In this document: piece by piece, positions 34,001 through 64,000 of the stretch
How positions within the stretch are numbered: position 1 is the first letter of the stretch
Layout of the letters: the number at the start of each line of letters is the position of its first letter
Assembly: GCA_029204225.1 (NCBI GenBank)
Contig: CM055104.1
Span: 40,639,929-40,703,928, forward strand
DNA from: Diphasiastrum complanatum
Taxonomy: Eukaryota; Streptophyta; Lycopodiopsida; Lycopodiales; Lycopodiaceae
Direction: 5' to 3'
Length of the DNA stretch: 64,000 nt
The notes under the pieces: generated by a model
Databases searched by the model: none
Told to the model about the DNA's origin: nothing
The model's input: the letters and a program-made list of their open reading frames with translations, nothing else
Position numbers and translations under genes: made by a program

Positions 34001-35783
34001 TACACCACCAATTTCAATAATTTATCCGTTTAGTGAATATCTCATGGCCTATGTTCCACTAGGCTCATTGTTCTCTTTACTATTGCTTTGTGGGACTGAT
34101 TGTGGGAACCATAGGTCATCAAATTAACCACATCTTCCCTGATTATCAAGCAACCAGTGTCTCTGCGTCAGAGTCTTACTGTTGGCTTCATGGAGCCATC
34201 AGGACAACATCTAAAACGATGTCTTAACCATCATTGGGGTGCACAGCAGAACCTAACACTGGTTTGAAGGTGCTGTTTTGGATAATCTCTAATCCCTAAA
34301 TTAGTGGCCTATGGATCTTATATTGAAGTAAGGAGCTATCCCAGTTCTATTAGCATAGAGTCCTGCAACTATATCTAGTTGAAAGCTGGGTTTTCAATGT
34401 TAGGTCTGCATGTTTTGGCAACCTTAATACTCATTTTTTGTCTTGTTCAGGTGTGAAATGAATTGATTGCACTGGTATGAATATGCAATTTGTCAAGTCA
34501 ATTTTGTTCTCCAAAATGCACAGATCTCTCTTGAAGTTCTATAGTATAATTCTTGTCCACATACATCTGATATGGATAATGACGGTTTTTGCAGGGGCTC
34601 AGGAGCTGATTCAGACTGGACCACTCGGATGCATCCTGTAGCTAGAGATGCAGCAGGGGTAGGCACATCTATACAGGGACATTCCAGAGGACTGAATCGT
34701 TTGCAGCTTATGATGAGACGGCTTTCGGGAACAACCCACGAACACGAGCAGAGGTCATCAGATGAAAATGGGTGGAGCTGGTGGCCATTTTCACGCTCTA
34801 CAGGAACAAACAACTCTGGGCAAGCAGACCAGCCAGGCAGGCGAAGATTTGACAACAGTAGTTTGAGGAGAAGGAACGTAAACACATCCAGGTTAGGCTT
34901 AGGGAGGACTGAGAATGGTAATCTGCGTATGACAGGCATGGTCAGCATGGTGAGGGAGGTTTTACCACATATTCCTGATGAAGTTGTTATAGAGGTAAAC
35001 TTTATGACCTCTTTGACCCTTCAGATTTTAAGTATCAATCATAAATTGACCGTTCCTTAATACCATAGAATTAATGAACCGTTATCTGTTCACCACGGTT
35101 CTGAGAACCGTACAGTGAACCGTACGGTTCTTAAATTTTTTTGCCCAGAACCGTGGTGAACCATACTGATTAATTAATTAATTTTGTTTTAGTTTCCCCC
35201 CCAAAAATAACCCAAAAATATGCAAAAAAAGGCCAAAAAATTCTGTGAAATCTGTGCATTTTGTGAAATCTGTCAATCATCTGTGAATCTGTATCATCTG
35301 TACCATCTGTGAATCTGTGTATCATCTGTGAAATCTGTATCATCTGTGAAATCTGTCAATCATCTGTCAAATGATGATTGACAGATTAATGATATCACAG
35401 ATTCACAGATGATTTGAGTATCATTAATCTGTGAATCTGTGTATCATTTGTGAAATAATCTGTCGAATGAAATCATCTGTGAATATGTGTATCATCTGTG
35501 AAATCATCTTTATCGTCTGTCTCATCTGTGAAATCTGTGAATTTGGTAACTAGTTAATTAATTAACTAATTAATTAATTATTTAGATGAACCGTACCACG
35601 GTTCAAGGAACCGTGGTACAGTTCCTTCCACGGTTCCCAGGACCCACGGTTCTGGGAACCGTGGGTTCTATGCGTAATACTTTCTTTGAGTGAAGTAAGT
35701 TTATCAACATGCAAGTCTGAAATGTGCCGCAGGATCTACGAAGAACAAATTCAGTTACTGCTACAGTCAATAATCTTCTGTGA
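19075..35783 (+). CDS. RIN2/RIN3-type membrane RING + CUE E3 ubiquitin ligase (5' end missing)
   Basis: Multi-pass E3 ligase of the plant RIN2/RIN3 family, related to animal gp78/AMFR; in Arabidopsis RIN2/RIN3 interact with RPM1. Eleven exons join in one frame (526 codons + stop): 19075-19152, 19506-19592, 19770-19891, 20800-20896, 21083-21188, 26241-26398, 26688-26825, 26958-27025, 32714-32989, 34595-34994, 35733-35783. Exons 1-6 encode hydrophobic membrane segments, including MFQGLARDRLERLNAS and LGHCFHIWWLRGLAF. The RING (C3H2C3: CAIC, CAHLFHLPC, CPTC) spans exons 7-9; the CUE domain (MVREVLPHIPDE, then TNSVTATVNNLL) spans exons 10-11. All splice sites are GT-AG except 26826-26957, which starts GC. 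The exon for about the first 75-80 residues was not found; it may lie left of the window. Confidence 0.93.
21189..26240. other. 5.05-kb intron 5 of the E3 ligase gene
   Basis: No gene supported on either strand; short frames lack domains. It contains a direct duplication of CTAGGTATTGTGTTTATTG plus TAAAAT at about 24958-25008. No LTR, LINE or MITE boundary is obvious, so any transposon content is too decayed to recognise by eye. Confidence 0.7.
26826..26957 (+). other. GC-AG intron inside the RING coding region
   Basis: Exon 7 ends TGC AAG, and the next bases are GCATGT rather than GT. The acceptor is ATTGCAG at 26951-26957. Only this junction gives the uninterrupted RING reading CAICK-EPMARAKRLPC. 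GC-AG introns are a known minor class spliced by the normal spliceosome. Confidence 0.85.
27301..27422. repeat. Tandem duplication of a ~55-bp unit
   Basis: Two diverged copies of ATACGA(A/G)TCACATTC + TTGAA(T/A)... + TTAATG-type sequence, at about 27307-27360 and 27367-27421, lie inside intron 8. Divergence suggests an old duplication. Confidence 0.6.
28264..29622 (-). mobile_element. Truncated copia element: 5' LTR, primer site, gag start
   Basis: Minus-strand LTR 29622-29121 starts TGTTGGAATG and ends CCTACA, followed at 29120 by TGGTATCAGAGTC (primer site). After a leader, the gag frame (about 28578 downward) carries LDGTNYSLWCYTIKNLIIAK and LWKVVNGDEE, the classic copia gag N-terminus. 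Recognisable coding ends near 28264; no protease, integrase, RT or 3' LTR follows. It lies antisense within intron 8 of the E3 ligase gene. Confidence 0.85.
31666..32300 (-). mobile_element. Possible copia LTR edge with primer-site-like sequence
   Basis: The reverse strand near 31690-31670 reads CTAGTATCAGAGCATCTGG, one base off the usual TGGTATCAGAGC. This suggests an LTR on its upstream side (higher coordinates). No paired LTR and no coding region support it. Right edge arbitrary. Confidence 0.3.
32990..34594. other. Intron 9 of the E3 ligase gene
   Basis: GT-AG intron of 1605 bp. It contains short frames without domains and a possible LTR-like segment around 33340-33670 with no partner. 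Nothing else is supported. Confidence 0.6.
35067..35680. mobile_element. MITE-like element (GAACCGTGGTACGGTTC type) with internal minisatellite
   Basis: The ends are inverted, internally repeated blocks made of AACCGTGGTAC/GTACGGTTC units: left about 35078-35135, right about 35586-35670. They are followed inward by TTAATTAATTAA-rich stretches. The centre (35244-35545) is a minisatellite of ATCATCTGTGAA(ATCTGT) units in both orientations. Non-coding. It sits in the last intron of the E3 ligase gene, about 50 bp before the acceptor of the final CUE exon. Confidence 0.8.
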
Positions 35784-46548: not shown

Positions 46549-48804
46549 ATGATGGCACCCAATCTGCAAAAAGCTGTGGAGAACCCTCCTGCACCTGCTG
46601 ACCATGAAGAGGCTGTAGGAAAGAATGAGGACGTCATTGGCAAAGATGAGAAGCTCCTCAACGAGCTTGGATACAAGCAAGAGTACAAAAGGGTGATGAG
46701 CTCATTCCAGCAATGGGCTTACACCTTTGATTATACTGCTCCCCTTGGATTTGTTACAGGCTACTATGGGTACATGTACACCTATGGAGGGCCTGTCACC
46801 ATCTTCTGGGCCTTCATCGCCACCTCCTTTGGAACACTGTGCATGGCATTTGCCATGTCTGAGATTGCTTCTGCTTTTCCCACCCTGGGAAGTGTCTATT
46901 TCTGGGTGGCAAAACTTGTGCCTAGTAAACATGCGCCAATTATATCTTGGTTTGTGGGTTGGGCTTATCTGATCGGATCCTTCAGTGGCACAGCTCTCAA
47001 TGAATATCTTCTGGCTCAGTTGATTGCAACGTCAATCCTTATTGGCACCGGGGGTGCACACGGTGGAGGATATCAAACATCCAACTCTGGAGTAAGCATA
47101 TTATCAGATGATGTCCTGAATTAATATTCATGCTATATTGTAGTTACGAGCAACATGTCTTTGTAGATGAAAGTATATATCTGATCATGGTACGCTGCTG
47201 GAATTATGTGATTAAGATGAGAAGGTTTGCTGCCTTTACTGCAGATCGTGGGAATCACTGCAGCCTTATTCTTAGTGCATTTCTTTGTTTCCATCGTGAA
47301 TACAAAATGGTTGGGATATCTAAGCGACATCGGTGCAGCATTCCAGATCTTGTCCATAGCTGTTATCTGTATTACTTTGCTGGCTGTTGCTCCTAAGTAT
47401 CAAAGTGCCAAGTTTGTATTCACGCATTTCATCCATGCTCCGGATAAAGGCATCCATAGCGGTGTGTTGGTTGTGCTGCTAGGCCTTCCCTGGTTCCAGT
47501 CCATTCTTACTGGATTCGAAGTGGGCTCTCACGTTGTGGAGGAAGTTGTTGATGCTGCCACAGCTTCCCCTCGCGCCATGGTGAACAGCATGTATGCCAC
47601 CGCGGGAACGGAGCTCGCATTACTGCTTTCTATGACATTCTGCATCCAGAACCCCGAGAATCTTTTAAGCCCAAATACTGCCACAGGTAACTAATCCCAA
47701 CATTGATCCAACCAAATTAAGTCAACATCAACGTTGGGATATAATCTCACCGAGTACATAAAGAAAACGAGCAAATTGTCCGGACATTAATTTTTTCCAT
47801 GTGTCTAAATGTGTTTCTCATATAGATTTTGGTAGCTTGAATCTGAAGAATGTATTCGCAGGTGGTGGTGAAATAACAGCTGGTGTACAGATCTTTTACG
47901 ACGTGTTTCAAGCCAGATACAAACACGGAGCTGCTGGTGCCATTGCATTCACCTTGCTGGCTGCTAGCTCCCTCTTTTTTGGCAACATCACCAATGTCAC
48001 GCTAACAGCAAGGATGGTGAGTAAAGCCTGATAATCACTCTGTGATCAAACTAATCGAGATCCAAAGCTTACGAGAGGATTTGAATAGTCAACTACCTAC
48101 TGAATATTGACACTGTTATTACTTGCTATGGCTTTCTCACTGAATGTGATCAATCAAGCTGAAAGTATAGTAAGCTAAGAGCAAATCTATTGTGTGGTAT
48201 CTAAACACATGTACTTTTTTGCATGCTTGCAACGTAATCGTTTTATATATCTGCTCACTGTTCTTGTTGATGTTGCCATCTGTAGGCTTATGCAATGGCT
48301 AGAGATCAGGGATTGCCAGGCTACAAATTATTGGTAAAGCTAACAAGTGGAGAGCGCATTCCCGTGGTAGCCACCATTGTAACAGTGGTGGGCTCATTTG
48401 TCTGCACGCTCCCAGCCATGGGCAGCAGCGTTGCCTTCGAGGCCATCACAGCCATGTCCACCATCACAGCATACCTCCCCTACACTGCAGTGCTGCTATG
48501 CCGTCACATATTTGACAACGACTTCAAGCCAGGGCCATACTCACTGGGGAGGTGGGCAGTGTGGGTGGGAGGCATAGGCTCAGCATGGGGGCTTCTCATG
48601 TCCCTCCTCTTCTGTCTCCCACCAGTATTCCCCATCACAGGCAGCAATTTCAACTACGCAGCTCCCAGCTTGGTGGGCTGCATGGTGGCAGGCGCCATTT
48701 ACTGGTACACTTCTGGAAAGTATACTTTCCATGGGCCAAGGCGCACGGTTGATGACCCGCCACCTGCTGACATTGAGAATTACAACAGAGCAGGCGCCCA
48801 GTAG
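46549..48804 (+). CDS. BAT1-like amino-acid permease (APC superfamily), intact four-exon gene
   Basis: Membrane transporter of amino acids or GABA, closest in pattern to plant BAT1 (bidirectional amino acid transporter). Exons 46549-47091, 47245-47686, 47862-48016 and 48286-48804 join in phase with GT-AG sites to give 552 residues, close to the usual ~520. The start follows the TC tract; a second ATG is adjacent. Seen: cytosolic LNELGYKQEYKRVMSSF, first membrane helices, the MSEIASAFPTLGSVYFWVA motif typical of the family, an acidic EVGSHVVEEVVDAA segment corresponding to the conserved glutamate region, NVTLTARM-AYAMARDQGLP across intron 3, and a final pair of helices. About 12 hydrophobic segments. 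No disruption; likely functional. Substrate is not deducible from sequence. Symbol withheld because BAT1 orthology is not demonstrated. Confidence 0.93.
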
Positions 48805-50693: not shown

Positions 50694-51815
50694 TGTTGGA
50701 TTATTCTCCTACTAATTGACTAATCGACATTTTAATCTTCGTCCAACTTTTATCCAGACCTGCAGTTTTCTTCGTGTTTTTACACAGTCTACATAACTAC
50801 TCGAAAATGGCTCACAGTGTCAGCTTTTTCGCAAAATGCCAAATGCCCTAAAAGTTAAGGAAATGACTTTAGCGAAGATTGTCGCATTTTTCGCTTGTGG
50901 CAGTTTACGTTCATTTCTGTAGAGTGTCGTAGTTTTCGCCTGTGGCAGTTTACGTTCATTTTTGTAGATTGTCACATTTTTCACTTGTGGCAGTTTACAT
51001 TCATTTCTGCAAAGTGTCGCATTTTTCGCCTATGGCACTTTACATTCATTTTTGTAGAGTGACAGTTTACGTTCATTTATGCAGATAGACTGTTTACGAC
51101 CAAAGCCACTGACTTGCATTAATCCATCAGCAAGTAGTTTCTGAAAAGTCCTAACTAGATGGATGCCAGCACATCACAGCCAACTAGATGACGCTTTGAC
51201 GACCTAATTGCTTAGTATAAATAGTTGTTCATATTTCAACATATAATTATCAAATGATATCAGGTATTGAATAGTTAGCTCTCTCTCAAGCCTGCGAGCT
51301 TGAACACTCTTGAGCATTCTAGCTCAATTCTTTAGAGTTGATTAGAGATTGCTATTGCGCTTACTACTTATATCAGTAGTTGCGCTTAATTCAAACCTTT
51401 ATTTAGTTACTCAAAAATAGCTTTGAGTACGCAGGTTCGATCCGCAAACTTGTTGTACTCATTTACTTTTGTTTCGTTTCATACTGAATCAATACTATCT
51501 TTTATTGCGTTCAGGTTTGTCTCAGAATGTATGCGTTTCTGTGAGTCTTTGAGACAGATTATTTGTCTGATAATTCAATGCTTAAATATTTGCCTACATA
51601 ATCATTGTAGTACTGATGATTTCAAAGTTAGTTACTATAAGATTGAACATGATTTTTATCACTATTGTTCTGTTCGAAATTGATAGGCGTAGTCATGCAT
51701 GAAGAAAGAGGAAGATAGTTTATTTTGCTATGCACGATAAGTTTTCTTTCTTGTCGTTTGAATTATTTTTTATTCGATTCTTTTAGACCTATCTTTTACA
51801 CACATCTTTCCGACA
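50694..51815 (+). repeat. 5' LTR (1122 bp) of a copia element
   Basis: Begins TGTTGGATTATTCTCC, ends CCGACA, and is followed at once by TGATATCAGAGC, a one-base variant of the initiator-Met primer site. It contains an internal tandem array (50879-51088). Its first bases resemble the LTR at 61.03-61.63 kb, so the two families are related. Confidence 0.85.
50879..51088. repeat. ~50-bp tandem array inside the LTR
   Basis: About four units of GTCGCATTTTTCGC(T/C)TGTGG + CAGTTTACGTTCATTTNTGTAGA, period near 50 bp, diverged, with a partial fifth. LTR-internal arrays of this kind often overlap enhancer-like sequence; here that is inference. Confidence 0.85.
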
Positions 51816-52900
51816 TGATATCAGAGCGTTGATTCTTCTTCAAGGCCTAATACTATATTAGAGCACAAGCTCTTGTACTTGATATCTTTCGCGATATCAA
51901 ATTATTCTTCAGTTTGAATCAATTTATTTCAGTATCAGAGAATTGATTTCTAATTGTAGTGCAGCACAGTATCTCTCTTAACATAGTCAAACTAAAATTC
52001 CAAATATATTCTCAAAGTAAAGTCGGCCTTATCACAGACAAGCTGAATGGATCCAAGTATCATTTATGGAATAAGATGAAGACCTTGCTAATCGCCAACG
52101 AGTTGTGGGATGTTGTTACAGGTATCGAAGTGAAACCTAAAGACGACACAAAAGTCTCAAAGTGGAAATCAAAGGATGTTAAAGCTTTCGCGCTTATTAT
52201 TCTCAAAATATCAGATACTCAAATTGGCCACATAGCTGAAGCTAAGACTTCGAAAGAAGTTTGGGACATCCTGAGCTCACTATATGATGTGAGAGACGTA
52301 ACTACCAAGTTACATCTTCGAAGAAAATTCTTCACACTCAAGATGTTGAATAATGATTCTCTTCAGAATCATATTAACCAGTTTTAGAATCTCTTGCAAC
52401 AGATGGCCGATGTCGGATCAGTCATAGGCGATCAAGACACAATAATGGCATTGCTTTCAAGCCTGCCCTCTACATATGAGAACTAGGTAATGATCATCAC
52501 GACACACTCAGATTTAACTCTTACCAAAGTTATCACTATGTTGCTGCAAGAAGATAATTGAAGAAGTCAAGACACTTCGTCTACCTCTTCATCTCATGCT
52601 CTATATGTCAACAAGGGCTCGAAACAACAGAAGCAGAAAAGCTCCAAGCAGTCTACATCGAATCAGAAACAGACTCAAAGTCAAGAATAATCATCAAACC
52701 CACATTCGTCGAAGAAGAAGATGTTTTGTAGGTATTGCAAGCGCAATAACCATGAGATCCAGAATTGCCAAGAACAAGCAAATACAGTTATAGCATCTCC
52801 TGAAGTCGCATTAGGGGATATTAGAACTCAAAATGGGCCCTTTGTCAAGATGTTGTTTTTGACTTCGCACGCTTTCAACGCTTATGTGTCCCAATGAATG
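51816..52900 (+). pseudogene. Copia gag following the 50.7-kb LTR
   Basis: After the primer site and leader, gag runs from about 51959: KLNGSKYHLWNKMKTLLIAN, LWDVVTGIEVKP, TTKLHLRRKFFTLKM, a stop, then MALLSSLPSTYEN and the knuckle CRYCKRNNHEIQNC (about 52730-52770). There are at least four in-frame stops. Recognisable copia sequence ends near 52900, with no protease or pol. The unknown gene cluster starts just beyond. Confidence 0.85.
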
Positions 52901-53258: not shown

Positions 53259-53923
53259 TGGCTACACATAATCGGAGACCAAGAGGAACCATTGATGCAC
53301 TCAATATTTGTAATGACAAAAAATGCAGAAGATCAATGGATACCAAGAATATATCGAAAATATCAATGGATCTTGATGCATCCCTCTACAAAAGGCTCAT
53401 TCCGAAAAAGAAAAAGATCGGACAACATATATAGAAGCCCTTGGAAAGGCAGGATAATGGATTTTAAAGTATCACCTGCCAGTCAATCTATCACGAAAGT
53501 TTTAGTTCAGCATGCTTATCTTCACAATGAGCTCAACATTCATGATCTGAATCCAAATGATAGAAGGAAATGCAATTGTAAGTTTTCAGATTCAATTTCT
53601 TTATATTTATCATTGTCTGTAAATTATATTTTTCTTGAGATGTTTTTGTTGGTTTTGCAGATTTGTATCCATCAAATTTCTTTGAATGGGAATCAGTTCA
53701 TTCGATTGTAGGAATAATCGATGTCATACATTCGGATATCGGTATTTTACAATATAAAGGTCGTTCTCCAAAATCACTTTTAGAGTCAGGAGTTTTTTAT
53801 TATGATGACATATATTTTCCTGATAAAATTGGTTTAGTTGGTAGATTAGAACCATATCCTCTACCAGATTTTTTGAGTGACGAATGGATTTCTCCTGATG
53901 CAGCAATTTCAGAAAGTTTTTGA
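53259..53923 (+). CDS. Unknown gene U1a (left gene of cluster, frame-broken near the start)
   Basis: I do not recognise this gene. ATG 53259 opens a basic N-terminus beginning MATHNRRPRGTIDALNIC that runs 58 codons to a stop. An overlapping frame continues as SPWKGRIMDFKVSPASQS to a GT donor at 53578. After a 83-bp intron (acceptor TTTTGCAG, 53660) the frame resumes as YPSNFFEWESVHSIVG with an acidic/aromatic region and a stop at 53921. Spliced-gene structure and protein-like composition support real coding. The frame break in the first exon suggests decay or a sequence error. Possibly the 5' part of one gene with the 54.0-54.6 kb frame, because the sequence after the stop still reads as protein-like for about 45 codons. 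Confidence 0.5.
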
Positions 53924-54033
53924 TCTAGGCTATATATTGATATTCAGAGTATATTAAAATGTAGCACTGGATCAAAGAATAATAGATTAAGTTGGTATCT
54001 ACCTTTTACAATTTTTGTTGATTTTTTTTCCAA

Positions 54034-54589
54034 ATGCAATGTTCGGAGAACGAAAACAATGTTTTGAGTGCTGATATAATCGCCGAGTTGTTGGATGATG
54101 GTTGGGATACAAAACAAAATCAGCAAGTTGAGTGCAGAGTATGTTACTCATCCATGACATTTAGATATCACATCGAAAAGCAACTGCTCACTTTGCTGTT
54201 GTATTATAGAAGATGGAATAAATGCAAAAATGTTTGGAAGCCACTTGATCAAGATTTTGGTATAAACCCTCAAGAGCAACTTCAGATAACAGTGAAAAGA
54301 AATGACAACATTCTTGCAATGGTTGAAGTTGAGGAAGATTGGTGTCTCAGTCACATTCGATCAGAACTAGACATGTTGCAATTCAATCTACCTCAATACT
54401 ATCAATTTCGATTGAATGGTGTAAAGGTACGTTATGCCATATAAAAATATTTCTTTTTTCTATTTCTAGGTGAATCAGTTTCATACAATATATAACTAAA
54501 CGATTTCTCTTGTGCAGGTAAGAGTAAGGCAGGAAGAGAATATAAAATGCAAAGACATTGGAACATCCATCGAAATTGAAGATCCATAG
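54034..54589 (+). CDS. Unknown gene U1b with ubiquitin-like-sized C-terminus
   Basis: Unrecognised family. Exons 54034-54426 and 54518-54589 join across a GT-AG intron (donor AAG|GTACGT, acceptor TGTGCAG) and end at TAG 54587-54589, about 154 residues. The first half has CRVCYSSMTFRYHIEKQL and a YYRRWNKCKNVWKP segment. The last ~75 residues alternate strand-like and helical stretches: ILAMVEVEEDW, LSHIRSELDML, YYQFRLNGVKVRVRQEE. That spacing is compatible with a beta-grasp (ubiquitin-like/doublecortin-like) fold; this is pattern inference only. It could be a separate gene or the 3' half of U1a. Confidence 0.5.
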
Positions 54590-54734: not shown

Positions 54735-55420
54735 GATAATATGAGTTTTCGATAGCAAGATTCATTGTCTCCTGCAGGAAATACACTATCTCCATTGGGA
54801 AGATCTTCAGTCACTTGAACTCCAGTTGAACACTTGCCCTTGTTGAAGTCTCGTATATATCGGTTGTATTTTTGGTCTTCATTCCCTTGGTCTGTATTGT
54901 CCTTGTCTTGGCATATTTGGATATGTTCAGATGATGATCTGATCAAAGCTTTGCTGTGACAAATCTAAGTGAACTAATGTCGCATGTTTGGATTGGTTGT
55001 GGCAAAGGTTCGATCAGATCATCATTATGAACTTATCCAAAAAAAGACCATGGTAAAGACAAGGCAAACCAAGGCTATGAAACACAAACATGTCAAAAAA
55101 TAGTAGAAATTGAAAATGAATGAATCATAACCTGAATTGATGAGGAAAAAAAAACATGTAAGAACAACTATAGAAAAACTGTAAGTATATTTCTATTAAA
55201 AAATTTTGTACATGTGTCTCATCCACATAAAGTGAGACGAATATTTAAATAGAATCAACTATTTATAATCTCTAAATCCATTTCTCCAGTTGGAAGTAGC
55301 TTGGGTGGAGAACACTAGGCCACTGCAATTGGATATGAATTTTTGATCACAATCTTTATGGTCTCCTGTCTGAAGTGCATTATCTCCATTGGGGAGACCT
55401 TCGGGCATTTAAACTAAAAA
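54735..55420 (-). repeat. Duplicated terminal exon of the protease gene and inverted repeat
   Basis: The minus strand at about 54735-54860 and 55285-55420 holds two diverged copies of the same segment, both translating to PMEI-x-x-F-x-QET. Between them, 54893-54962 and 54996-55075 form an imperfect inverted repeat around GATGATCTGATC. This indicates local duplication and inversion at the 3' end of the protease gene. Confidence 0.65.
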
Positions 55421-55919
55421 AAAAAAACATAAACACAATTAAATGTAATTAATCAAAGATCAGTTAATAGAAGTTTGTATATGAAAAAAATAAAAACACA
55501 ATTAAAAGTAATTAATCGAGTATTACCTCTTCCATATTTGGAAGTCCATCTTGTAATGCAAGCCAATCAAAAAAGTGTTTGGCATTGCATACGGTATACC
55601 AGCCACAGCTGACAGAATCAGCCTGCTGGGAGGACTGCAGAATCCAAATTTGAACATTATGAGATATAGGATCAACGCGCAGGATGTAAGAATAAAATCT
55701 ACAACAAAAACAAGCGCGCGTCGATCGGATATCAAAAAAATTTGATTGAATATCAGATCAGCGTGCACGTTGGAAAAGTAAACCAATCAATAACTACAAG
55801 GGTGCATCGAACCGATATTGAAAAATTTATACCTCTACATCAACCATTTTCAGCTTCGAGTATGCTTTTGCATTTGGTACTGGAAATAGTTCCAGTATTT
55901 TCTACATATGGTTCCTGGC

Positions 55920-55956
<37 letters not shown>

Positions 55957-56463
55957 GAGTTCATCTTCAAACAAACTGGATTACACACACCCTCATCATT
56001 GACATACATGGACAACATATATAAGCTCCAATGATCACTGAAATCAAAAAACAAGAAATTTTTGAGAATCAATGTGAAATCAAAATTCATATGAAAAATT
56101 CAATAAAATAAAATCTGAAAAATAGTCACTTACTTTGTTATGTATGGCAGCACGAGAATTGGAATCCCCAGTATGGCGTATTGGAGCATATCATCATGCA
56201 GACTTTTGAAATCAGGGAAATCAAATGCTGCCATGAATTGAAGGGGAAACAATGCAACATCTATAAACAATGGGGTCTGGAAGAACTCCATCCAGTACTG
56301 AATGGCCCCACCTCCTACATTGTCCCCTAGCATTTTATCCCTACTTTTTAATTCAGCAATATCTAAACTAGAAAAGGGGAGACAAGCATCGGACTTCGGC
56401 ATCCTAAAACTGTATCGAGGACCTAAACCTTTAAGATACGTATTTAACAATTGGTCATACTAT
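55315..56463 (-). CDS. Adenain/Ulp1-like cysteine protease gene
   Basis: Minus-strand gene with plausible GT-AG exons: about 56459-56134, 56037 to about 55990, about 55705-55527, and 55413-55315 (stop). The 56134/56037 splice rebuilds ...ITNDHWSLYML, whose HW is the catalytic-His motif of CE-clan proteases. The third exon reads WILQSSQQADSVSCGW, then YTVCNAKHFFDW: a Gln a few residues before a Ser-x-x-Cys-Gly, the oxyanion Gln and nucleophile Cys. An Asp/Glu third residue is not certain. Such proteases cut SUMO-type or polyprotein substrates and occur in Ulp1 enzymes, several DNA transposons and DNA viruses. Upstream, to about 56960, is a proline-rich, NLS-like region (SERRKRKQ, KKRRS). The middle exon/intron limits are uncertain. 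Confidence 0.65.
55927..55952. repeat. (GT)n microsatellite
   Basis: About 13 GT units lying in the protease gene region just after the HW exon. It may have disturbed local splicing or coding. Confidence 0.95.
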
Positions 56464-56962
56464 ACATATTGAGGACTATTTACAAAGGCAAGTGCAGGGG
56501 GTGTCGGAAGTAACACAGATAAACCACATAAAAAATTGTCATTCAAAATTGATTCTACCTTTACACTAACAAAATCATCTAAATCGCTTCCAACAATAGG
56601 AGGAGAGGAACTAATATTAATGGGTTTAGGAGGAGGAGGAGATTTAGGAGGTGGAGATTTATTAGGAGAGGAAGATTTATCAGGAGAAGTTAAAGATGGA
56701 GTGGAAGGAAAGAAGGAGACTTAGGAGGAGAAGAAGGAGAATTAGGAGGAAAATTAGGAGGGGAATGAATAGAAGAAAGAATATTATTCAGAGGAGTTGG
56801 CTTGGAAAAATTCCTCGCTTTAGATGGAGGGTCAAGAGACCTCCTCTTCTTTGAAACACTCCCGCTCTGTATATGAATAACAAGCCGGGTTGGTTGGGAT
56901 TGCTTGCGTTTTCTCCTCTCTGAATCTTGTTTTGGAGGAGAGGAGGGAGCAGGTCTAAAGTA
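56464..56962 (-). other. Proline-rich, NLS-like linker region between histone-like and protease frames
   Basis: In the same frame as the histone fold, past its TAA, the minus strand reads a basic/proline-rich stretch (SSPPKQDSERRKRKQ, then SVSKKRRSLDPPSKA). After one frame change it becomes repeats of SPP/PPK. It has the composition of a disordered nuclear protein region. It could be the N-terminus of the protease, reached through an intron acceptor (TTTAG just after the TAA). Confidence 0.5.
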
Positions 56963-57378
56963 TTAAGCAAACTTGTCATATGTGTCTTGAAGCCTGAACA
57001 CTATGTTGAAATCCTTGGGCATGCTGGTCACCCTCTTGGCATGGACAGCTGCAACAACAACATCAAAAAAAAATTTCACCTGGAAATCCTCATATGTTGT
57101 GTGCAGTGTCTCAATTGTCATTATCGTCCATCTTACATCTGCAGATAGACTTCTTGTCACCTGCCTGATGGACCTTTGTATGTGAGATTTCGGAATCAGA
57201 AGATTATTTGTCTTCTGAAGCTTCTGAATATCCTTGAGCCATGGAGGGTCTCTTCTTCTGCCCCTTGGCCTAGGAGGAGGTGCTGGTGGACGAGGTGGCG
57301 GTTGTAGATTTCCTGACCCGCACCTGAAATTGGTATTCCAACTGAATGCCCACGTGCTGTGTGCTTGGTCTGCGCCAT
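56963..57378 (-). pseudogene. CENH3-like histone H3 variant (frame break after the N-terminus)
   Basis: Centromeric-histone-like frame. The ATG at 57378 starts MAQTKHTAR, as in CENH3 tails. About 20 codons later the register changes, and an Arg/Pro-rich linker leads into a complete histone fold. This has alpha-N LKDIQKLQ, then QKTNNLLIP, a loop 1/alpha-2 start with VRWT, and alpha-3 VHAKRVTSMPKDF. It ends FRLQDTYDKFA-TAA, near the normal H3 C-terminus. By eye the fold aligns to canonical H3 without gaps, with roughly 30 of 80 positions identical. NLLIP, RW and KDF point to CENH3 rather than H3.1/H3.3, but loop 1 lacks the usual CENH3 two-residue insertion. The frame break means pseudogene, an assembly error or a missed splice. 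The motif array lies directly upstream. Confidence 0.75.
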
Positions 57379-58773
57379 TAATGTGTAGTAGTGGATCAGT
57401 GCGCGATAATGTTGATTACGGGATCAGACCTCAGGTCGGACGCGTCGAAGCGATACTGGAGCTCAACAATTACGTAAGTTGGTAGCAGATGGGCGCGCGC
57501 GAGTAGTAACAGATTGAAGGAAGTTGGTTTTGAGCGTGCTCAATCGATATCGCATGGATGCAATTAACTATAAGCAAACAAATTTCAACGTCGTCGATCA
57601 GTTTATATAGAGAAAATCAGAAATGATTGCAAACGTGGTGATTTGCAAACGTGGTGGCTTGTATTACGATGATGATTACTTAAAGGCTTGTCAATAATCC
57701 ATCAGTCTTCAAAATGATTAGTCCATATCGAATTAAACAGATTTAATTTCAAATAAAGTATGGTCACATCTACAATTAATGCTACAAAAGTATAATATCA
57801 CACTTCTACCATTTAATGCTGAATTTGACAACGTTAAGCTTTAAATATAAGACCTTTTTTATATCCAATAATTATAATTTTTGAAAATACCAAAAGCCAA
57901 ATTTTCACCCGATAGCTAATCAACGCGCATATGAAGCATTTGACAACCATAGTATGTATTCTCGCGCGCTCATCTGATATTGAATGCAATAAGAATGATC
58001 AGAACTTGATTCGATAGATTCTGCATAACTTTGGCCATTATGAAGAGTCTTCCGAATCAAGCTTTGATCATGCATATAGGGTCTACGTTCCAGTAATATT
58101 TTTCTTCATATGGGATATCAGATAAGCACGCCTAGCAGACGTGCTGATCCGAAAAGAAAATTTTTTGTCTTTACGGTGCTTAAATAGAGCGAGAGATTGT
58201 AATAATTCTCCTTGTTCATGTTTTTCAATGATATCCATTAATCAATTGTTTATAATTTTTGTAATGATTATTCTAGGAGGCTAGTGATTTTCTATTTAAT
58301 GCATTCCGGTGCAGGTACAGATTCTAGGGTCAGGGCTAATGATGATTAGTTGAATCTAGTACTAGACTAGTCAATGTATTTCAGCTTAGGTACAAATTAG
58401 TCTCATTCTGATTGGTGGATAAATATAGGCTGTAAATCACAATTCGTTATTTGACATATGTATGACTGTGATCAGCAGGAATTGGCTATAAATATGTGTA
58501 CCACTTGTCTTATTTCAATTTTGTAATCTTTTATTCTGAACTCTCTAGCCTTTTTGTTTTTCTTCATTCTCCCGATATCGAATCGACGCACGCCAACCCT
58601 TTCTGTGCATGCTCGTATTCATTCTAGCGCGCTGAATCGATATCAGCCACTGCCGACCAATTTTTTTTTTTAAATTTCATTCTCGGCCTTACCATATCGG
58701 ATCAGCGCGCGTACTTTGCTTTATTCTTCTACCGATATTTATCTGTTGCGTTGAACCGATATCAGATTCAATA
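57379..58773. promoter_or_regulatory. Divergent intergenic region between the CENH3-like gene and gene U3
   Basis: About 1.4 kb with no coding frame, lying between the minus-strand ATG (57378) and the plus-strand ATG (58774). It holds about ten of the GATATC/CGCGCG motifs in three groups (57.39-57.55, 57.91-58.15, 58.57-58.76 kb). A pyrimidine-rich leader (58540-58580) precedes U3. The arrangement suggests a bidirectional promoter; this is inference. Confidence 0.5.
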
Positions 58774-60298
58774 TGGCTAGTTCCTCCATGGCCTCAGATG
58801 ACAAACTTATGGATTTTTTTATGCTAGTGATATTTCATCTGACAAATTAGAGTATTTTGCTAGTATTTTTTTTGCTCCCTTCGATATCGATGAGCTAGTT
58901 TATGAGAATTGTTATAATTTAATTTCTTATCTTGATAATTTTTCTCAAATTATTAGTACTCCTGTCATGGATATGGATAATTTTTGTTTCGTTCATTTTC
59001 AGGACCTTGTACATTTCCAACCATCCTCTAAGCATAAACACAATAGAAAGTACTCTAATATGCATGACCATTTCAAAAGAAATATATATTGTGATATCCA
59101 CAAAAGAATATGTCTCCTTATAATCAAATGAATGGCTTTTGTGTTCTACATATCTGCTGAAATTCCAGATGATGAGTCTGTTAAATCTTCAACTGTTCCA
59201 TTGATCGAAGCATCTGCACCTGCTCCAGTTGATGTAAATGATGCAGATAGTGATATAGGGGTTGAAGCTGAAGCTTCTATGGCTTCAGATTATCAAAAAA
59301 CTCTCCCTTGTTCTATAATCCTCTCTGATCCTCTTCTATCTGCATCTTCCGTTAATCAATTAATTCTACTTGATGTTCCTTTATATTTTATAAATGATGA
59401 ATGTTATATTTCATTTAATGATATAGAAGATGTATTGAATCTAAGAGAGGATGAAATCCTCTCAATTTTTGTTCAAAATTTATCAGAATTTTTTCACATT
59501 GTTGATTACTCAAATGATGACCTTGAAAGTGAGATAGATTATGATAAAGATGGCAATTGGAAATATGGCAATGAGGCCTTGGAGGCCATGATTGAAAAAT
59601 CTAAAGCCTATGAAAAGACTTTGCCTACAGAGGAGGAATTTTTGGAATTTCAAAAAGGATATCCTCCTAGGGCTAGATATATCCCCTCCAAAAATGCAGA
59701 GGCCATTAGAGGACATGACATCAGTAGAGCAAACGTGATTGATTACGATGATTATGATCTGGTAAGTAGATATTATATTGGTATTGATATTGTTCAGTTT
59801 TCTTATTGAGTTTGCAGTGTTATGTATCGTTCTAAATTTATTTTCTTTTCTCATTTAAAGGGTGCTATTGAAATAGATGCCTTTGGTATGAGACATGGAG
59901 GCGTCCGAGGTGTATCAGCCGAGAGAAAAGATGTTTCTCTATCTCATTATTTGAAAAACTTTCAAAATATTGAGATTTGTATATATCATTCATCTTATAT
60001 ACCATATGCAACCACTTTTATTATGGCCATCAAATCATTATCAGTTTGTTTAGGAGGCCATAAGTACGCAAGAGAAACATATAAAATAATTTTTGTGAAG
60101 AGAGATTTGGCTATCAAGATATTGGGTTATACACCCAATGAGACTACCAAAAGATCATCTGCAATGGCCCTTTATTCGGGTTACATTGATATGAACAAGA
60201 GGAAAAAATTAGAATTTTTGGATCCATATGAAAGGAGATTATTCCTTCATGACAATACCATCCGTCTGAATCTTGAAGAGGATGATGATGATAATTAA
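58774..60298 (+). CDS. Unknown gene U3 (acidic, spliced, right gene of cluster)
   Basis: Unrecognised family. ATG 58774 begins MASSSMASDDKLMDFF; a T-run then shifts the frame, and an acidic/aromatic stretch continues (LEYFASIFFAPFDIDEL). A long exon (about 59132-59761) reads a Pro/Ala/Asp-rich part. Then come PLYFINDECYISFNDIEDV and a helical EEEFLEFQKGYPPRARYIP segment. It is joined by a clean GT-AG intron (59762-59860) to the last exon, 59861-60298. That exon has AFGMRHGGVRGVSAERKD, TFIMAIKSLSVCLGGHKYA and an acidic tail LEEDDDDN. The intron is phase 0 and preserves the frame. Other exon limits between 58774 and 59132 are uncertain. No catalytic motif seen. Confidence 0.55.
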
Positions 60299-61030
60299 AT
60301 AATTTTCTGTAATAGAGATTTGATATATTACAAGGATCTCTCTTTTGTAATGAATTTGAATGCCTTTCGAAATATCGTAATACTTGGCGAGTTTTTAGCT
60401 TGATATCTAAACTGTGCTCTTCTGTAAAATCACTGAAAAAGTTGAACTAAATATTTATTTTTTGAATTGTGTCCTCCATGATTTGTTGTTCTATGAAATG
60501 CTCTCTTTGCTTGCCAATGAGATTTTTCCATGCCTTGTGATGACCACATACTTAAGCTCCCATATTCCTTTGCAAAATAAGTTGCATGATGAAGAAGGAT
60601 GTGCTGCAAACAATAGTTTTGATTAGTCACATCAGTAGAAAAAAATATAAGCCTGAATGAGAAAAGTACCAGATAATGATATAGATTAGCACCATGTAAT
60701 GAGTAACGTTGTCTTTTCCCCAATAATCATGTACAGATTTTACAAATGTGGTGCAATGATTTTGCAAAGTCCTCATATTTCTGATGATAGGTTTTCTTTC
60801 CTGATAACACCTATGAGTTTGTCTAAGTTGGTCCACACTTGTCTCTTTTTCACTCGATTACTTCCTTCCAATGTTCGTGTCGCTTGAACAATTTCTCTCC
60901 AAATTTTGTATCTGACACTTGATTTATTGCATGTGTGATTGGATCAAAATCTTCTTGCTTTAGCACCTCCAATTGATGGCTTATTAGGAACGTTTCCTTT
61001 TTTCCCTGAGAGTCTGTCACTTTTTTTAAT
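60299..61030. other. Non-coding with possible decayed minus-strand frames
   Basis: The first part is probably the 3' UTR of U3. On the minus strand, 61017-60780 reads protein-like pieces in shifting frames (DPITHAINQVSDTKFGEKLF; IWREIVQATRTLEGSNRVKK, then VWTNLDKLIGVI). This might be the relic of another cluster gene; no domain identified. Confidence 0.35.
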
Positions 61031-61631
61031 TGTCGCGTGCTCTACAAAGCTAATTCAATCCGTAAAGGAATAAAACCTTATTACTAACAATAAAGAATCA
61101 ATACACAAAGCATCTACTTCATCTATCTCTCCGATGACACACACTTGATCTTCAATCTCTTGATCAATGATCAGGTTGAATACGCAAATGATATTCAATA
61201 TATATACACATTGTTATATGTGTGCAGATGAAGAAAGTACAAAGTGGATGTGTTGTCTGTAGGAGATCGTGGGTGACTACAATCATTGTCAAGTCTGTTA
61301 GCACAGTTATGATGGGGTGAGCGTGAAGAGGCCGCGACGTCAACCTTCGCTGAAATGAACGTTGGTGAAGATGCAAAAAATGCGACACTCTGACGAAATG
61401 CATTAGGATTGATTTACAAGGTGCCTTCAGCATTTTTGTAAGACAGTATCGTCTTTTTTGCCTGTCACAAATCACGTGTAAAAATACAAGGTGGCATTCT
61501 TTGTCTTTTCTTCACCTGTGAGAATTTTTCTGTAAATATGCAGACTGCGCGACAACATGAGTAAATATGCAGCATGAGTGGAGGCATATTAAAAATGAGA
61601 TTTAGGAGAGTAGAGGAGATAAATCCAACAC
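61031..61631 (-). repeat. 3' LTR of a copia element
   Basis: In element orientation it begins TGTTGGATTTATCTCC immediately after the polypurine tract AAGGAGGAGGGG (61632-61645) and ends GCGACA at 61031, about 601 bp. The start resembles the 50694 LTR (TGTTGGATTATTCTCC). No 5' partner is in the window. Confidence 0.82.
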
Positions 61632-61640
61632 CCCTCCTCC

Positions 61641-62890
61641 TTAATCTGGATCTGTGAATGCCTTGATCTTCAGACTAAGCAATGCACAAAATTTGTTGTG
61701 TGCATTAACACTGAGAGCTTTCGTGAATATGTCTGCAACCATGTCTTGCATTCTACAGTACGTTAAGCTTACCTCCTTGTTGAGAACCTTGCCCCTGATG
61801 TAGTGATATCTGATTTCAATGTGCTTACTCCTAGAGTGAAATCTAGGATTGGCCAATAAAGAAATAGCACTCTGATTATCACAGAATAAAATTGTAGGGT
61901 TGTACTGATGCAGATTAACATCTGACAGTAAATTTCTCAACCAAAACGCTTCCTTAATAGATTGAGAAGCAGCAATGTATTCTGCTTCTGTAGAAGAAAG
62001 TGCGATAGAGGTTTGCTAACTATTGTTCCATGAGATAGGACCGTCGTTGAAGAATAATGTAAATCCAGATGTGGACTTACGATTGTCTACATATCCTCCC
62101 TAGATTGCATCAGAATAACCACTGAGATGATGAAGATTGTCGTTGTTGACATCTCCATAGCAGATGCACTGGTCCATGGTAGCTCGAATATATCTCATGA
62201 CTCGTATGAGAGCCTTCCAATGGGTAATGCCAGGATTAGTCATATATTGGTTGAGTGACCTTACAACAAAAGTGATACCTGGTCTTGTACAGAGCATTGT
62301 GTACATGAGAGATCCAAGTATCGATCGATAGGGATTCTCTCTCATATGCTCCTCTTCCTGCTTAGTCTGGGGACATTGGTCCTTCAACAAGTGCAGGCCT
62401 GGATCCATCGGTGAGTGAGCTAATTTACAATTCATTAGATTGTATCTATTAAGAACATTATGAAGATACCTTTGTTGAGTGATGTAGATCAATCATCTCG
62501 CTCTGTCTCTGTGGATCTGAATTCCCAAACAGAAGTGAGCTTCGTCCAGATCAGTCATGTCGAACTCTGAAAATAGCATCTGCTTAGAATCCTTGACCAA
62601 ATTGGTATTGTTGCTGAAGAGCAACGTATCATCCACGTATAAGGTGATGATGATGAAGGATTGTTGCACTGACTTGGAATAGACATTGCAATCAGCAGTG
62701 CTTGGTTTGAATCCTTGTTCGATGAGGAATGTGTTGATCCTCTGAAACCAAGCTCTGGTAGACTGTTTCAGGCCGTAAAGTGCTTTGTGGAGTTTACAGA
62801 TATGATTCTTCATACCTTCCAGAAACTCTCCTTCGAGCTGGATCATGTAGATGTCTTCTTGTATAACTCCATTCGAATAAGCTATTTGTA
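61641..62890 (-). pseudogene. Copia reverse transcriptase-RNase H, 5'-truncated
   Basis: The minus strand carries the second half of copia pol: KLHKALYGLKQSTRAWFQ, the catalytic block LYVDDTLLF (about 62640), FCLGIQI, then RSILGSLMYTMLCTRPGI. RNase H follows (SSTEAEYIAA, then CDNQSAISLLANP and KHIEIRYHYIRGKV), ending at the polypurine tract. There are two or more in-frame stops (about 62490, 62103, 62020). Sequence similarity ends abruptly at about 62890, inside RT, so the 5' half is missing. Confidence 0.92.
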
Positions 62891-64000
62891 ACAAATGTGA
62901 AATTTTAAAGAAATAAAGACCAAGAATGGATCTAGATCAGATCCTCAAGAGGTGTTGAAAGCTAGATTACTTGATCTACTAATCAACCAATGATTAGATC
63001 TGGAATTAGATCAATTTCCCATCAAAAATCTAGCAAGAACAACAAGCAAATGATTAAACTTGAGACCCACTGCCTTCACACGTGTGAAGAACAGTACCTG
63101 TATGGACTTACAATAGAGAGTGAAGTACACAAGTGCTAGAAAGCAATAGAACCATAAAATCACAACACAAATATGAGAATACTCAAGATATGCCTCCAAA
63201 ACCAAGATCTTGTTTCATTGATTTCTCAAGGTGGATCCATCATGGATTAAATACAAAAATCATCATACTCTCTCTCTCTAAGCCACTTCCAGCACGTGTG
63301 AGACAGGTCATAGTGCTTATCCATATCCACTTTGGCTAAGATTCAATGAATTTGCCACATCATCATTGGTGGCTAGTGTTGACCTTCTAGATTCCTACAA
63401 ATTAGGAGATAGGTCCTACAATCTAGGAGATTTGACATTTGACTTGTGTGAAAACTATATACAATGGATTTGAACTTTTAACATGATATTCCACATGTGG
63501 GAGACCACTCATACCTATGTGATATAGCATTTTCTACCACTAGAATTGTGCCAATAATGCTACTAAACTAGTTTTTGACCAATTTAGCCACTAGTTTCCA
63601 AATTAAATGATATGTACAACCCATATGATCTATCTAAATGACTTAGGCATATATTTCAACGTGGGAACAGGCTCCACACATGTCTAATGCTGATAGGTAC
63701 AAGTCATTATGGTATTTACAAGATTTAACCAAGTTAGCTTTTGCCAAATTTAACATCAAATTGAATTCTTCATGTGAAAGCTGTATTTCCAGCAAGCATG
63801 CTAGAACTCCACTCATAATGTTCATGAAGTAATGTAAAAAAATATTGTAATATATAATGTGTGTGAAGTAATGCAATTTATAATGTGCATGAAAAATGTA
63901 TAAATAGAATGTAATTCATGCTTAGTTTGCTATTTGATCCAAATGTCCAATGCAATCCAAAAATATTTCCAAAAGCAATCCAAGGACTGGTCCTCTCCAA
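62891..64000. other. Non-coding right end
   Basis: AT-rich; no gene or complete repeat recognised. It may include LTR sequence of another family (CACAACACAAATATGAGAAT-type leader), but I see no primer site or paired copy. Confidence 0.45.

What the first reader, a model, noticed from the sequence alone, without database searches (positions are those of the whole stretch)
56963..57378. Divergent CENH3-like histone next to a protease inside transposon-rich DNA
A minus-strand frame carries a full H3 fold, alignable to canonical H3 without gaps, plus CENH3-type features: MAQTKH start, NLLIP after alpha-N, RW at the start of alpha-2, and KDF in alpha-3. Yet loop 1 has canonical H3 length, and many core residues are changed (for example FFFDVVVAAVHAKRV). 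CENH3 is normally a single-copy host gene, so a divergent copy in a cluster of unknown genes suggests capture, neofunctionalisation or a relic of centromere-related DNA.
Basis: partly seen in the sequence, partly recalled or inferred. Interest (0 to 1): 0.92.

Follow-up and report, generated by a model that had tools for sequence, protein, structure and literature searches.

The report
Transposons carrying a histone H3-like gene
The odd histone is not a stray centromere gene but one decayed copy of a jumping-gene group, present at well over a thousand places in this plant genome, whose members carry their own altered histone H3, in at least two families joined to a SUMO-protease-like domain, which suggests these elements may act on the packaging of the DNA they sit in.

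Summary
The histone frame is real (PF00125 E=9.9e-15), but the CENH3 reading is not supported. Searching the window's own 1.74-Gb genome showed a decayed copy of a high-copy, multi-gene DNA element. A copy of the same subfamily (L037) is one open 417-aa frame: H3-like tail, histone fold, linker, start of a cysteine protease. Family B (9.3 kb, 35-bp inverted ends) has the same plan; its protease exons match Peptidase_C48/Ulp1 (E=5.2e-11). The four genes of B have counterparts in order around the window histone, the transposase as a remnant. 1,772 exact sites encode the motif KRVTIMPKD(F/L), none in the reversed control. Representatives of four families (A-D) share 20 residues with host H3. No tail seen has lysine 9; those of A, B, D keep lysine 4. 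The window's 'TKH' is private. Best reading: transposon-encoded H3 variants, fused to an Ulp1-type protease in B and D, acting at chromatin, perhaps against K9-based silencing. Identity is strong; function is inferred. Plant transposons with Ulp1 domains are known; I found none with a histone.

The parts
57290..57378 (-). H3-like N-terminal tail (MAQTKHTARG...), out of frame with the fold in this copy
   Evidence: 0 of 3000 shuffles reach its score; in frame with the fold, by the script's test, in 19 of 23 other subfamily D copies
56963..57319 (-). H3-like histone-fold domain, open frame
   Evidence: PF00125 E=9.9e-15; 150 scored genomic matches of 78-100% identity, itself included
56463..56962 (-). 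basic/Pro-Ser-rich linker of the fusion, broken here by stops and a frame shift
   Evidence: the linker is open in L037 and L039; frames
56133..56459 (-). first exon of the Ulp1/C48-like protease part
   Evidence: in one open frame with the histone in L037 and L039; Pfam does not recognise it alone
55953..56039 (-). protease exon with catalytic-His motif NDHW
   Evidence: matches the family B exon weakly (E=0.003); GT-AG intron before it
55527..55634 (-). protease exon with catalytic-Cys motif QQADSVSCGWYT
   Evidence: tblastn with family B exon E=2.2e-9; family B exons of one copy joined are PF02902 E=5.2e-11
55315..55413 (-). probable last exon FKCPKVSPMEIMHFRQETIKIVIKNSYPIAVA
   Evidence: read by eye; similar frames in L037 and L039; family B match not significant
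53304..54429 (+). element gene 1 (unknown; no Pfam family)
   Evidence: tblastn with family B gene 1, E=3e-33 and 4e-67
58838..60259 (+). element gene 3 (unknown, acidic)
   Evidence: tblastn with family B gene 3, E=3e-23 and 3e-30
60684..61039 (-). remnant of the transposase-like gene (last part only)
   Evidence: tblastn with the third family B piece E=2.5e-25 and family A gene E=1.6e-13; the first two B pieces found nothing
50876..51029 (.). possible left end of the window element (tandem repeats, inverted match to 61373-61403); tentative
   Evidence: inverted repeats I2 and I5; no family B type end with fewer than 12 of 35 mismatches in the window

Best explanation
The window holds a decayed copy of a multi-gene DNA transposon whose standing gene set includes a histone H3 variant fused to an Ulp1/C48-type cysteine protease. 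The fusion is shown for subfamily D (L037, L039) and family B (several copies); family C shows the histone, linker and the start of the same C-terminal part; family A carries the H3-like domain and no protease was found in its fetched sequence. The H3-like part keeps residues that, by general knowledge, pair H3 with H3' and touch DNA (identity shown), so it probably folds with H4 and enters, or docks on, nucleosomes (inferred). Tails keep the block around K4 in A, B and D but have no K9, and in B and D almost no lysine other than K4 (shown for the tails read). Most likely mechanism (inferred): the element places an H3 that cannot carry K9 methylation on its own chromatin, and the attached protease removes SUMO or another ubiquitin-like tag from silencing factors there, countering silencing. 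Probability of the identity part about 0.93; of this mechanism about 0.35; the figure below is for the statement as a whole.
For: Own-genome searches: 6,325 and 6,849 loose first-look candidates, 150 scored in each; every listed match has E at or below 2.3e-20 (13 of them canonical H3) and 4.6e-59. 1,772 exact KRVTIMPKD(F/L) sites, reversed-pattern control 0. Fusion open frames in the window's subfamily. Peptidase_C48 from one family B copy. Shared outer limits and 35-bp inverted ends in 3 copies. Gene-for-gene homology window-B and A-B. K4 in 22 of 22 readable D tails and K9 in 0 of 22; one lysine only in 15 of 18 D and 4 of 5 B tails measured. 20 residues identical in host H3 and one representative each of A-D. 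dN/dS 0.34, 0.22, 0.43 within A, B, D; pN/pS 0.36-0.56 between families and host H3.
Against: No expression, localisation or binding data. Copies were found by protein similarity, which lowers dN/dS. The transposase-like gene and genes 1 and 3 match no Pfam family, and no target-site duplication was seen in the 3 copies checked. The one family C copy has lost K4 as well. Family A shows no protease in 8 loci of 9.9 kb. The structure model is weak (pLDDT 47.7 alone, 64.6 with an H3 alignment, pTM 0.23 and 0.27). 7 of 24 D copies and 2 of 7 B copies have a stop inside the fold.
Confidence: 0.5

Rival explanations
1. The histone part was taken from host CENH3 and steers the element or its chromatin to centromeres (integration address or segregation help).
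For: Ten residues of the window copy shared with plant CENH3 only, 4.7 expected, 65 of 5000 draws reach it; window copy beside plant CENH3 with 97/98; grouping with H3 weakly rejected, p=0.037, in an earlier tree; B-D share A98D and I124F; element copies plus plant CENH3 side by side in the best later tree, 56/86. A crowd of ARTKQT(A/T)R sites at C3:18.5-20 Mb is unexplained.
Against: Tail has Q, not H, at position 5; loop 1 has canonical length in A, C, D; 117 of the best-scoring subfamily D copies show no significant departure from uniform along contigs (KS p=0.14); element copies plus H3 not rejected (p=0.27, p=0.13).
Confidence: 0.2
2. The H3-like domain is a mimic or decoy: its ARTKQTAR tail and fold bind H3 chaperones, K4 readers or demethylases without entering nucleosomes, bringing the protease to them.
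For: Tail block H3 1-8 kept in A and D, partly in B, and cut off just before K9; direct fusion to a protease.
Against: DNA-contact and H3-H3' residues (R69, R83, H113, K115, R116, T118, D123; roles recalled) are kept too, which a mere tail mimic would not need.
Confidence: 0.2
3. Passive cargo: a captured gene fragment amplified by hitch-hiking (Pack-type element), with no role for the element.
For: Capture of host gene pieces, Ulp1 included, is common in plant transposons (passages of PMC13317346; PMC2528002). Some copies have stops in the fold.
Against: Four families only 36-62% identical in the fold (31-53 of 86) keep it with pN/pS 0.38-0.56 against high pS and matching splice sites in three B copies; long open frames in many listed copies.
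Confidence: 0.08
4. Host CENH3 paralogue or relic near a protease.
For: LLIP, RW and KDF present.
Against: Copy number, element structure, private TKH.
Confidence: 0.02

Closest known systems
KAONASHI/KI-MULE and KIU (Vandal) elements of Arabidopsis; ULP-carrying MULEs and CACTAs of grape, melon, rice
   Same: Plant DNA transposons with an Ulp1/C48 protease domain as a standing part (passages of PMC2528002, and PMC13317346)
   Different: The passages I saw mention no histone domain. Here the protease is C-terminal to an H3-like histone, lies on the same strand as the transposase-like gene, and no MULE or CACTA transposase family is found
Plant CENH3 / CENP-A
   Same: Histone fold of the H3 type; LLIP; F84W in subfamily D; I124F in B-D
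   Different: Canonical loop-1 length in A, C, D; Q at position 5; over a thousand sites; fused to a protease in B and D
Divergent plant H3-like variants (for example Lotus P0121)
   Same: NLLIPK and canonical loop 1
   Different: P0121 keeps K9 and is a tandem H3-like protein with no protease part in its 291 aa
Viral histones (bracovirus H4, giant-virus histones; recalled, not tested)
   Same: A selfish element carrying a core histone
   Different: No relative in IMG/VR by four scans that reach close relatives only; here a transposon-like gene set

Membership tests
Histone H3 (fold) | Match to core histone profile and to H3 | tested here: met
   PF00125 E=9.9e-15 window, 3.1e-20 L037, 4.7e-28 L019
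Histone H3 (fold) | Residues of the H3-H3' bundle and DNA contacts (H113, R116, D123, R83, K115, T118; roles recalled) | tested here: met
   identical in host H3 and one representative of each of families A-D
Canonical H3 | Tail lysine 9 | tested here: not met
   0 of 22 readable D tails; D (4) or G (1) there in 5 A tails found among 8 loci; D in 5 B tails found among 7 loci; A in the one C copy
Plant CENH3 | MARTKH start (recalled) | tested here: not met
   H only in the window copy; of 22 others 21 Q, one stop
Plant CENH3 | Longer loop 1 (recalled references) | tested here: not met
   canonical length in A, C, D; one residue more in B
Plant CENH3 | W in place of F84 | tested here: inconclusive
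   W in subfamily D only; F in B and C, V in A
Plant CENH3 | Groups with CENH3 in a tree | tested here: inconclusive
   window copy with plant CENH3 97/98; unresolved; with families A-D included 56/86, and with H3 not rejected p=0.27
Plant CENH3 | Centromere localisation | not testable with these tools
   needs microscopy or ChIP
Peptidase C48 (Ulp1) | Profile match with His and Cys motifs | tested here: met
   family B copy C7 exons, PF02902 E=5.2e-11, cut-off passed; window exons no hit
MULE (KI-MULE) or CACTA | Superfamily transposase domain | tested here: not met
   no Pfam family for the transposase-like gene of A or B
CACTA | CACTA ends and 3-bp target duplication (recalled) | tested here: not met
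   ends begin CATTAGAGG; no duplication seen in 3 copies

The most novel reading that the evidence does not exclude
A group of DNA transposons, perhaps an undescribed superfamily, carries its own nucleosomal histone: an H3 variant that in most families keeps the K4 end of the tail but cannot be methylated at K9, in at least two families fused to a SUMO-type protease, kept by selection across at least four families in one plant genome, and used to hold the element's chromatin open against silencing.
Probability: 0.33. Interest if true: 0.97.

Novelty: new variant of a known kind. Interest (0 to 1): 0.9.

Why it matters
Histones belong to the host, and transposons are silenced by marks placed on them, H3K9 methylation above all in plants (general knowledge). 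A transposon group that brings its own H3, keeping the tail up to K4 but not K9 and in two families joined to an Ulp1-type protease, would be a direct genetic weapon in that conflict. It would make 'can a selfish element rewrite the histone it is wrapped in' testable with one gene. It also warns that H3-like or CENH3-like hits in plant genomes may be transposon genes.

Tried and rejected
Chance match: rejected. Recent ordinary H3 pseudogene: made unlikely by divergence without stops or indels in the fold (simulated neutral decay to about this identity leaves no stop in about 4-6% of runs, indels not counted), then rejected by the family. CENH3 by marks: my first test favoured it (14 shared states, 3 of 5000 draws); after adding the Lotus H3-like protein it weakened (10 states, 65 of 5000; 8 states shared with the H3 side only), and the family tails removed TKH. 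Trees with the window copy alone have a branch of 2.4-2.7 and gave shifting answers: unresolved, H3 grouping p=0.037 and CENH3 grouping p=0.375; beside plant CENH3 with 97/98, H3 grouping p=0.13. Mini-intron in the FFF stretch: rejected by eye from the gapless alignment. Viral origin: no relative in four IMG/VR scans, which reach close relatives only. Protein database: P0001 and the C48 part of a read-through gave nothing, but the word filter makes these weak tests and families A-C were never searched there. One search (an alignment of typed H3 and CENH3 with P0001) listed 120 of 7,987 hits; the five I read were tandem H3 or H3-like proteins. Gene 1 as a BAH domain: my guess by eye, no Pfam support, not claimed. 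Protease exons beside the family C copy look like part of a nested family B-like element, so no protease is claimed for C. Structure prediction: too weak to search with. Literature: search 23 (two papers, passages of one read), 27, 93 and 96 (none) showed no transposon with a histone gene; three later searches failed, so absence from print is not shown.

Full report
What was checked. The minus-strand frame 56963-57319 encodes an H3 fold: PF00125 E=9.9e-15, PDB H3 variants and H3 E=2.6e-14 to 1e-13 for the best, 31 of 89 residues identical to H3.1 without gaps. The start MAQTKHTARG lies at 57378 in another frame; none of 3000 dinucleotide shuffles of the 662 bases 57239-57900 gives a start as good. 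Downstream on the same strand lie a basic, Pro-rich linker and exons with the motifs DHW and QQADSVSCGWYT.

The locus is one of many. The window is G000:C13:40639929-40703928 of a 1.74-Gb assembly. A histone-profile search of that genome gave 6,325 loose candidates; 150 were scored and 153 matches counted: 13 at about 164 bits (8 of them fetched and read as canonical H3), then a plateau near 100 bits. A search with the window's own domain gave 6,849 candidates; the 150 scored are 78-100% identical to it, the window included. First-look numbers are loose and are not copy counts. A degenerate pattern for KRVTIMPKD plus F or L (it also lets S stand for R) has 1,772 exact sites and none in its reversed control. 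A pattern for ARTKQT(A/T)R (S again allowed for R) has 695 and none in its control, host H3 genes included.

It is a fusion gene. I fetched 16 copies of about 10 kb, flanks of six, three subfamily D copies of 3.2 kb and 20 short D copies. In L037 a single 417-aa frame runs from MVQTKQTARGHSGG (after 13 residues upstream) through the fold and linker to the protease part ending at an intron; L039 has a 426-aa frame of the same plan. L038 has the H3-like domain followed by copia sequence, read as a nested insertion. Against these the window copy is broken by a frame break in the tail, a stop just after the fold, and a shift and a stop in the linker; open copies exist. Family B (L011, L014, L018, L019 and others) has the plan too. 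Its exons from one copy match Peptidase_C48 with E=5.2e-11, with GT-AG introns at matching places in the three copies compared. Family A (8 loci) has MARTKQTAR, a long disordered stretch and the fold at the C-terminus, with no protease found in the fetched sequence. Family C is one copy, L013: histone, linker and the start of the same C-terminal part; the protease exons further on look like part of a nested B-like element, so its protease is not shown.

It is a transposon. Copies C2, C7 and C3 of family B share outer limits (9,306 bases in C2; C3 holds an insertion) with 35-bp inverted ends starting CATTAGAG, different flanks, and no visible target-site duplication. Four genes lie between: a transposase-like gene with 'GDLKTLK...HPCLYC', an acidic gene 3, the H3-protease gene, and gene 1. 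Only the histone and protease parts match a Pfam family. The four genes have counterparts in order in the window: gene 1 at 53304-54429 (E=3e-33, 4e-67), fusion (9e-19), gene 3 at 58838-60259 (3e-23, 3e-30), and a transposase remnant at 60684-61039 (2.5e-25; the first two of three B pieces found nothing). Transposase, gene 1 and gene 3 of family A match those of B (best E=9e-36, 5e-28, 5e-13). Copia pieces lie on both sides in the window (gag PF14223 E=2e-25 at 51959-52384; copia-type frames at 61641-62936 by eye).

What is kept. Twenty fold residues are identical in host H3 and one representative of each of families A-D (one loop residue of B taken out): L48 I51 R52 Q55 L61 I62 R69 R83 E97 F104 D106 H113 K115 R116 V117 T118 I119 K122 D123 R129. 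From general knowledge these include the H3-H3' bundle and DNA contacts. Within families dN/dS is 0.34 (A, 8 copies), 0.22 (B, 7) and 0.43 (D, 24 with the window); between families and host H3 pN/pS is 0.36-0.56 with pS 0.67-0.92, at or near saturation. The copies were chosen by protein similarity, which biases these values down. Seven of 24 D copies and two of 7 B copies have a stop in the fold.

The tail. In 22 readable D tails (of 23 other copies; the window and L049 left out) K4 is kept in 22, R8 in 20, and position 9 is G 20, L 1, R 1. In A the start is ARTKQTAR followed by D (4) or G (1) in 5 of 8 loci, one of them with M for T6; in B RRKQTRRD or KRKQTRRD in 5 of 7; in C ARTESTARA. By a pattern that caught 18 D, 5 B and the C tail, the tail up to the fold has one lysine in 15 of 18 D, in 4 of 5 B and in C. 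The host's canonical H3 has K9 (8 of 8 loci read). So TKH in the window is private.

Origin. With families included, B, C and D form a clade (95/92) and all six element rows fall on one side (75/75). Joining them with plant CENH3 has 56/86, and joining them with H3 is not rejected (p=0.27). With the window copy alone, one search put it beside plant CENH3 with 97/98 (H3 grouping p=0.13) and one search left it open (H3 grouping p=0.037). A CENH3-like origin is therefore possible but not shown. Residues shared with CENH3 exceeded a simple null (3 of 5000) and did so more weakly after adding the Lotus H3-like protein (65 of 5000).

Mechanism. Shown: the sequence facts above. Inferred: folding with H4, chromatin entry, protease activity, action on silencing. 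I prefer the anti-silencing reading because plant transposons are silenced through H3K9 methylation (general knowledge), because Vandal elements with an Ulp1-carrying VANC-type gene are reported to induce hypomethylation of related elements (passages of PMC13317346), and because every tail read lacks K9 while K4 stays in A, B and D. Centromere targeting is less likely: of the 150 best subfamily D matches 120 lie on the large contigs C1-C23, and the 117 with known contig length show no significant departure from uniform (KS p=0.14); these are the best-scoring copies only.

Known and new. Ulp1 domains in MULE and CACTA elements are known (passages of PMC2528002; PMC13317346). A histone in such a gene I did not find in searches; three more searches failed. 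The host looks like a plant by its genes and retroelements; 1.74 Gb with 23 large contigs recalls a clubmoss such as Diphasiastrum, but that is a guess from memory.

Noticed in passing
G000:C3:18.5-20.0 Mb: 27 of the listed ARTKQT(A/T)R sites (the list stops at C3:19.95 Mb) crowd here, most with a codon version that is neither that of the 8 host H3 genes read nor family A's; perhaps a further family or a local array.
   Followed up: no
window 46549-48801 (+): Exons of an amino-acid permease (AA_permease_2, best E=4e-14).
   Followed up: partly
window 32634-35057 (+): RING-like and CUE-like exons by eye, resembling RIN2/3-type E3 ligases (recalled); only a weak CUE hit, below cut-off.
   Followed up: partly
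L038:657-2330: H3-like domain in one open frame with copia polymerase, probably by a nested insertion.
   Followed up: partly
merged C13b (L033+L022+L032) about 3.9-4.8 kb, and L013:7634-7921: Further diverged protease exons and a further H3-like fragment, pointing to more families than A-D.
   Followed up: partly
window 54739-54821 and 55333-55415: Two 83-base copies, 76% alike, one of them over the probable last protease exon; perhaps a duplicated end exon.
   Followed up: no
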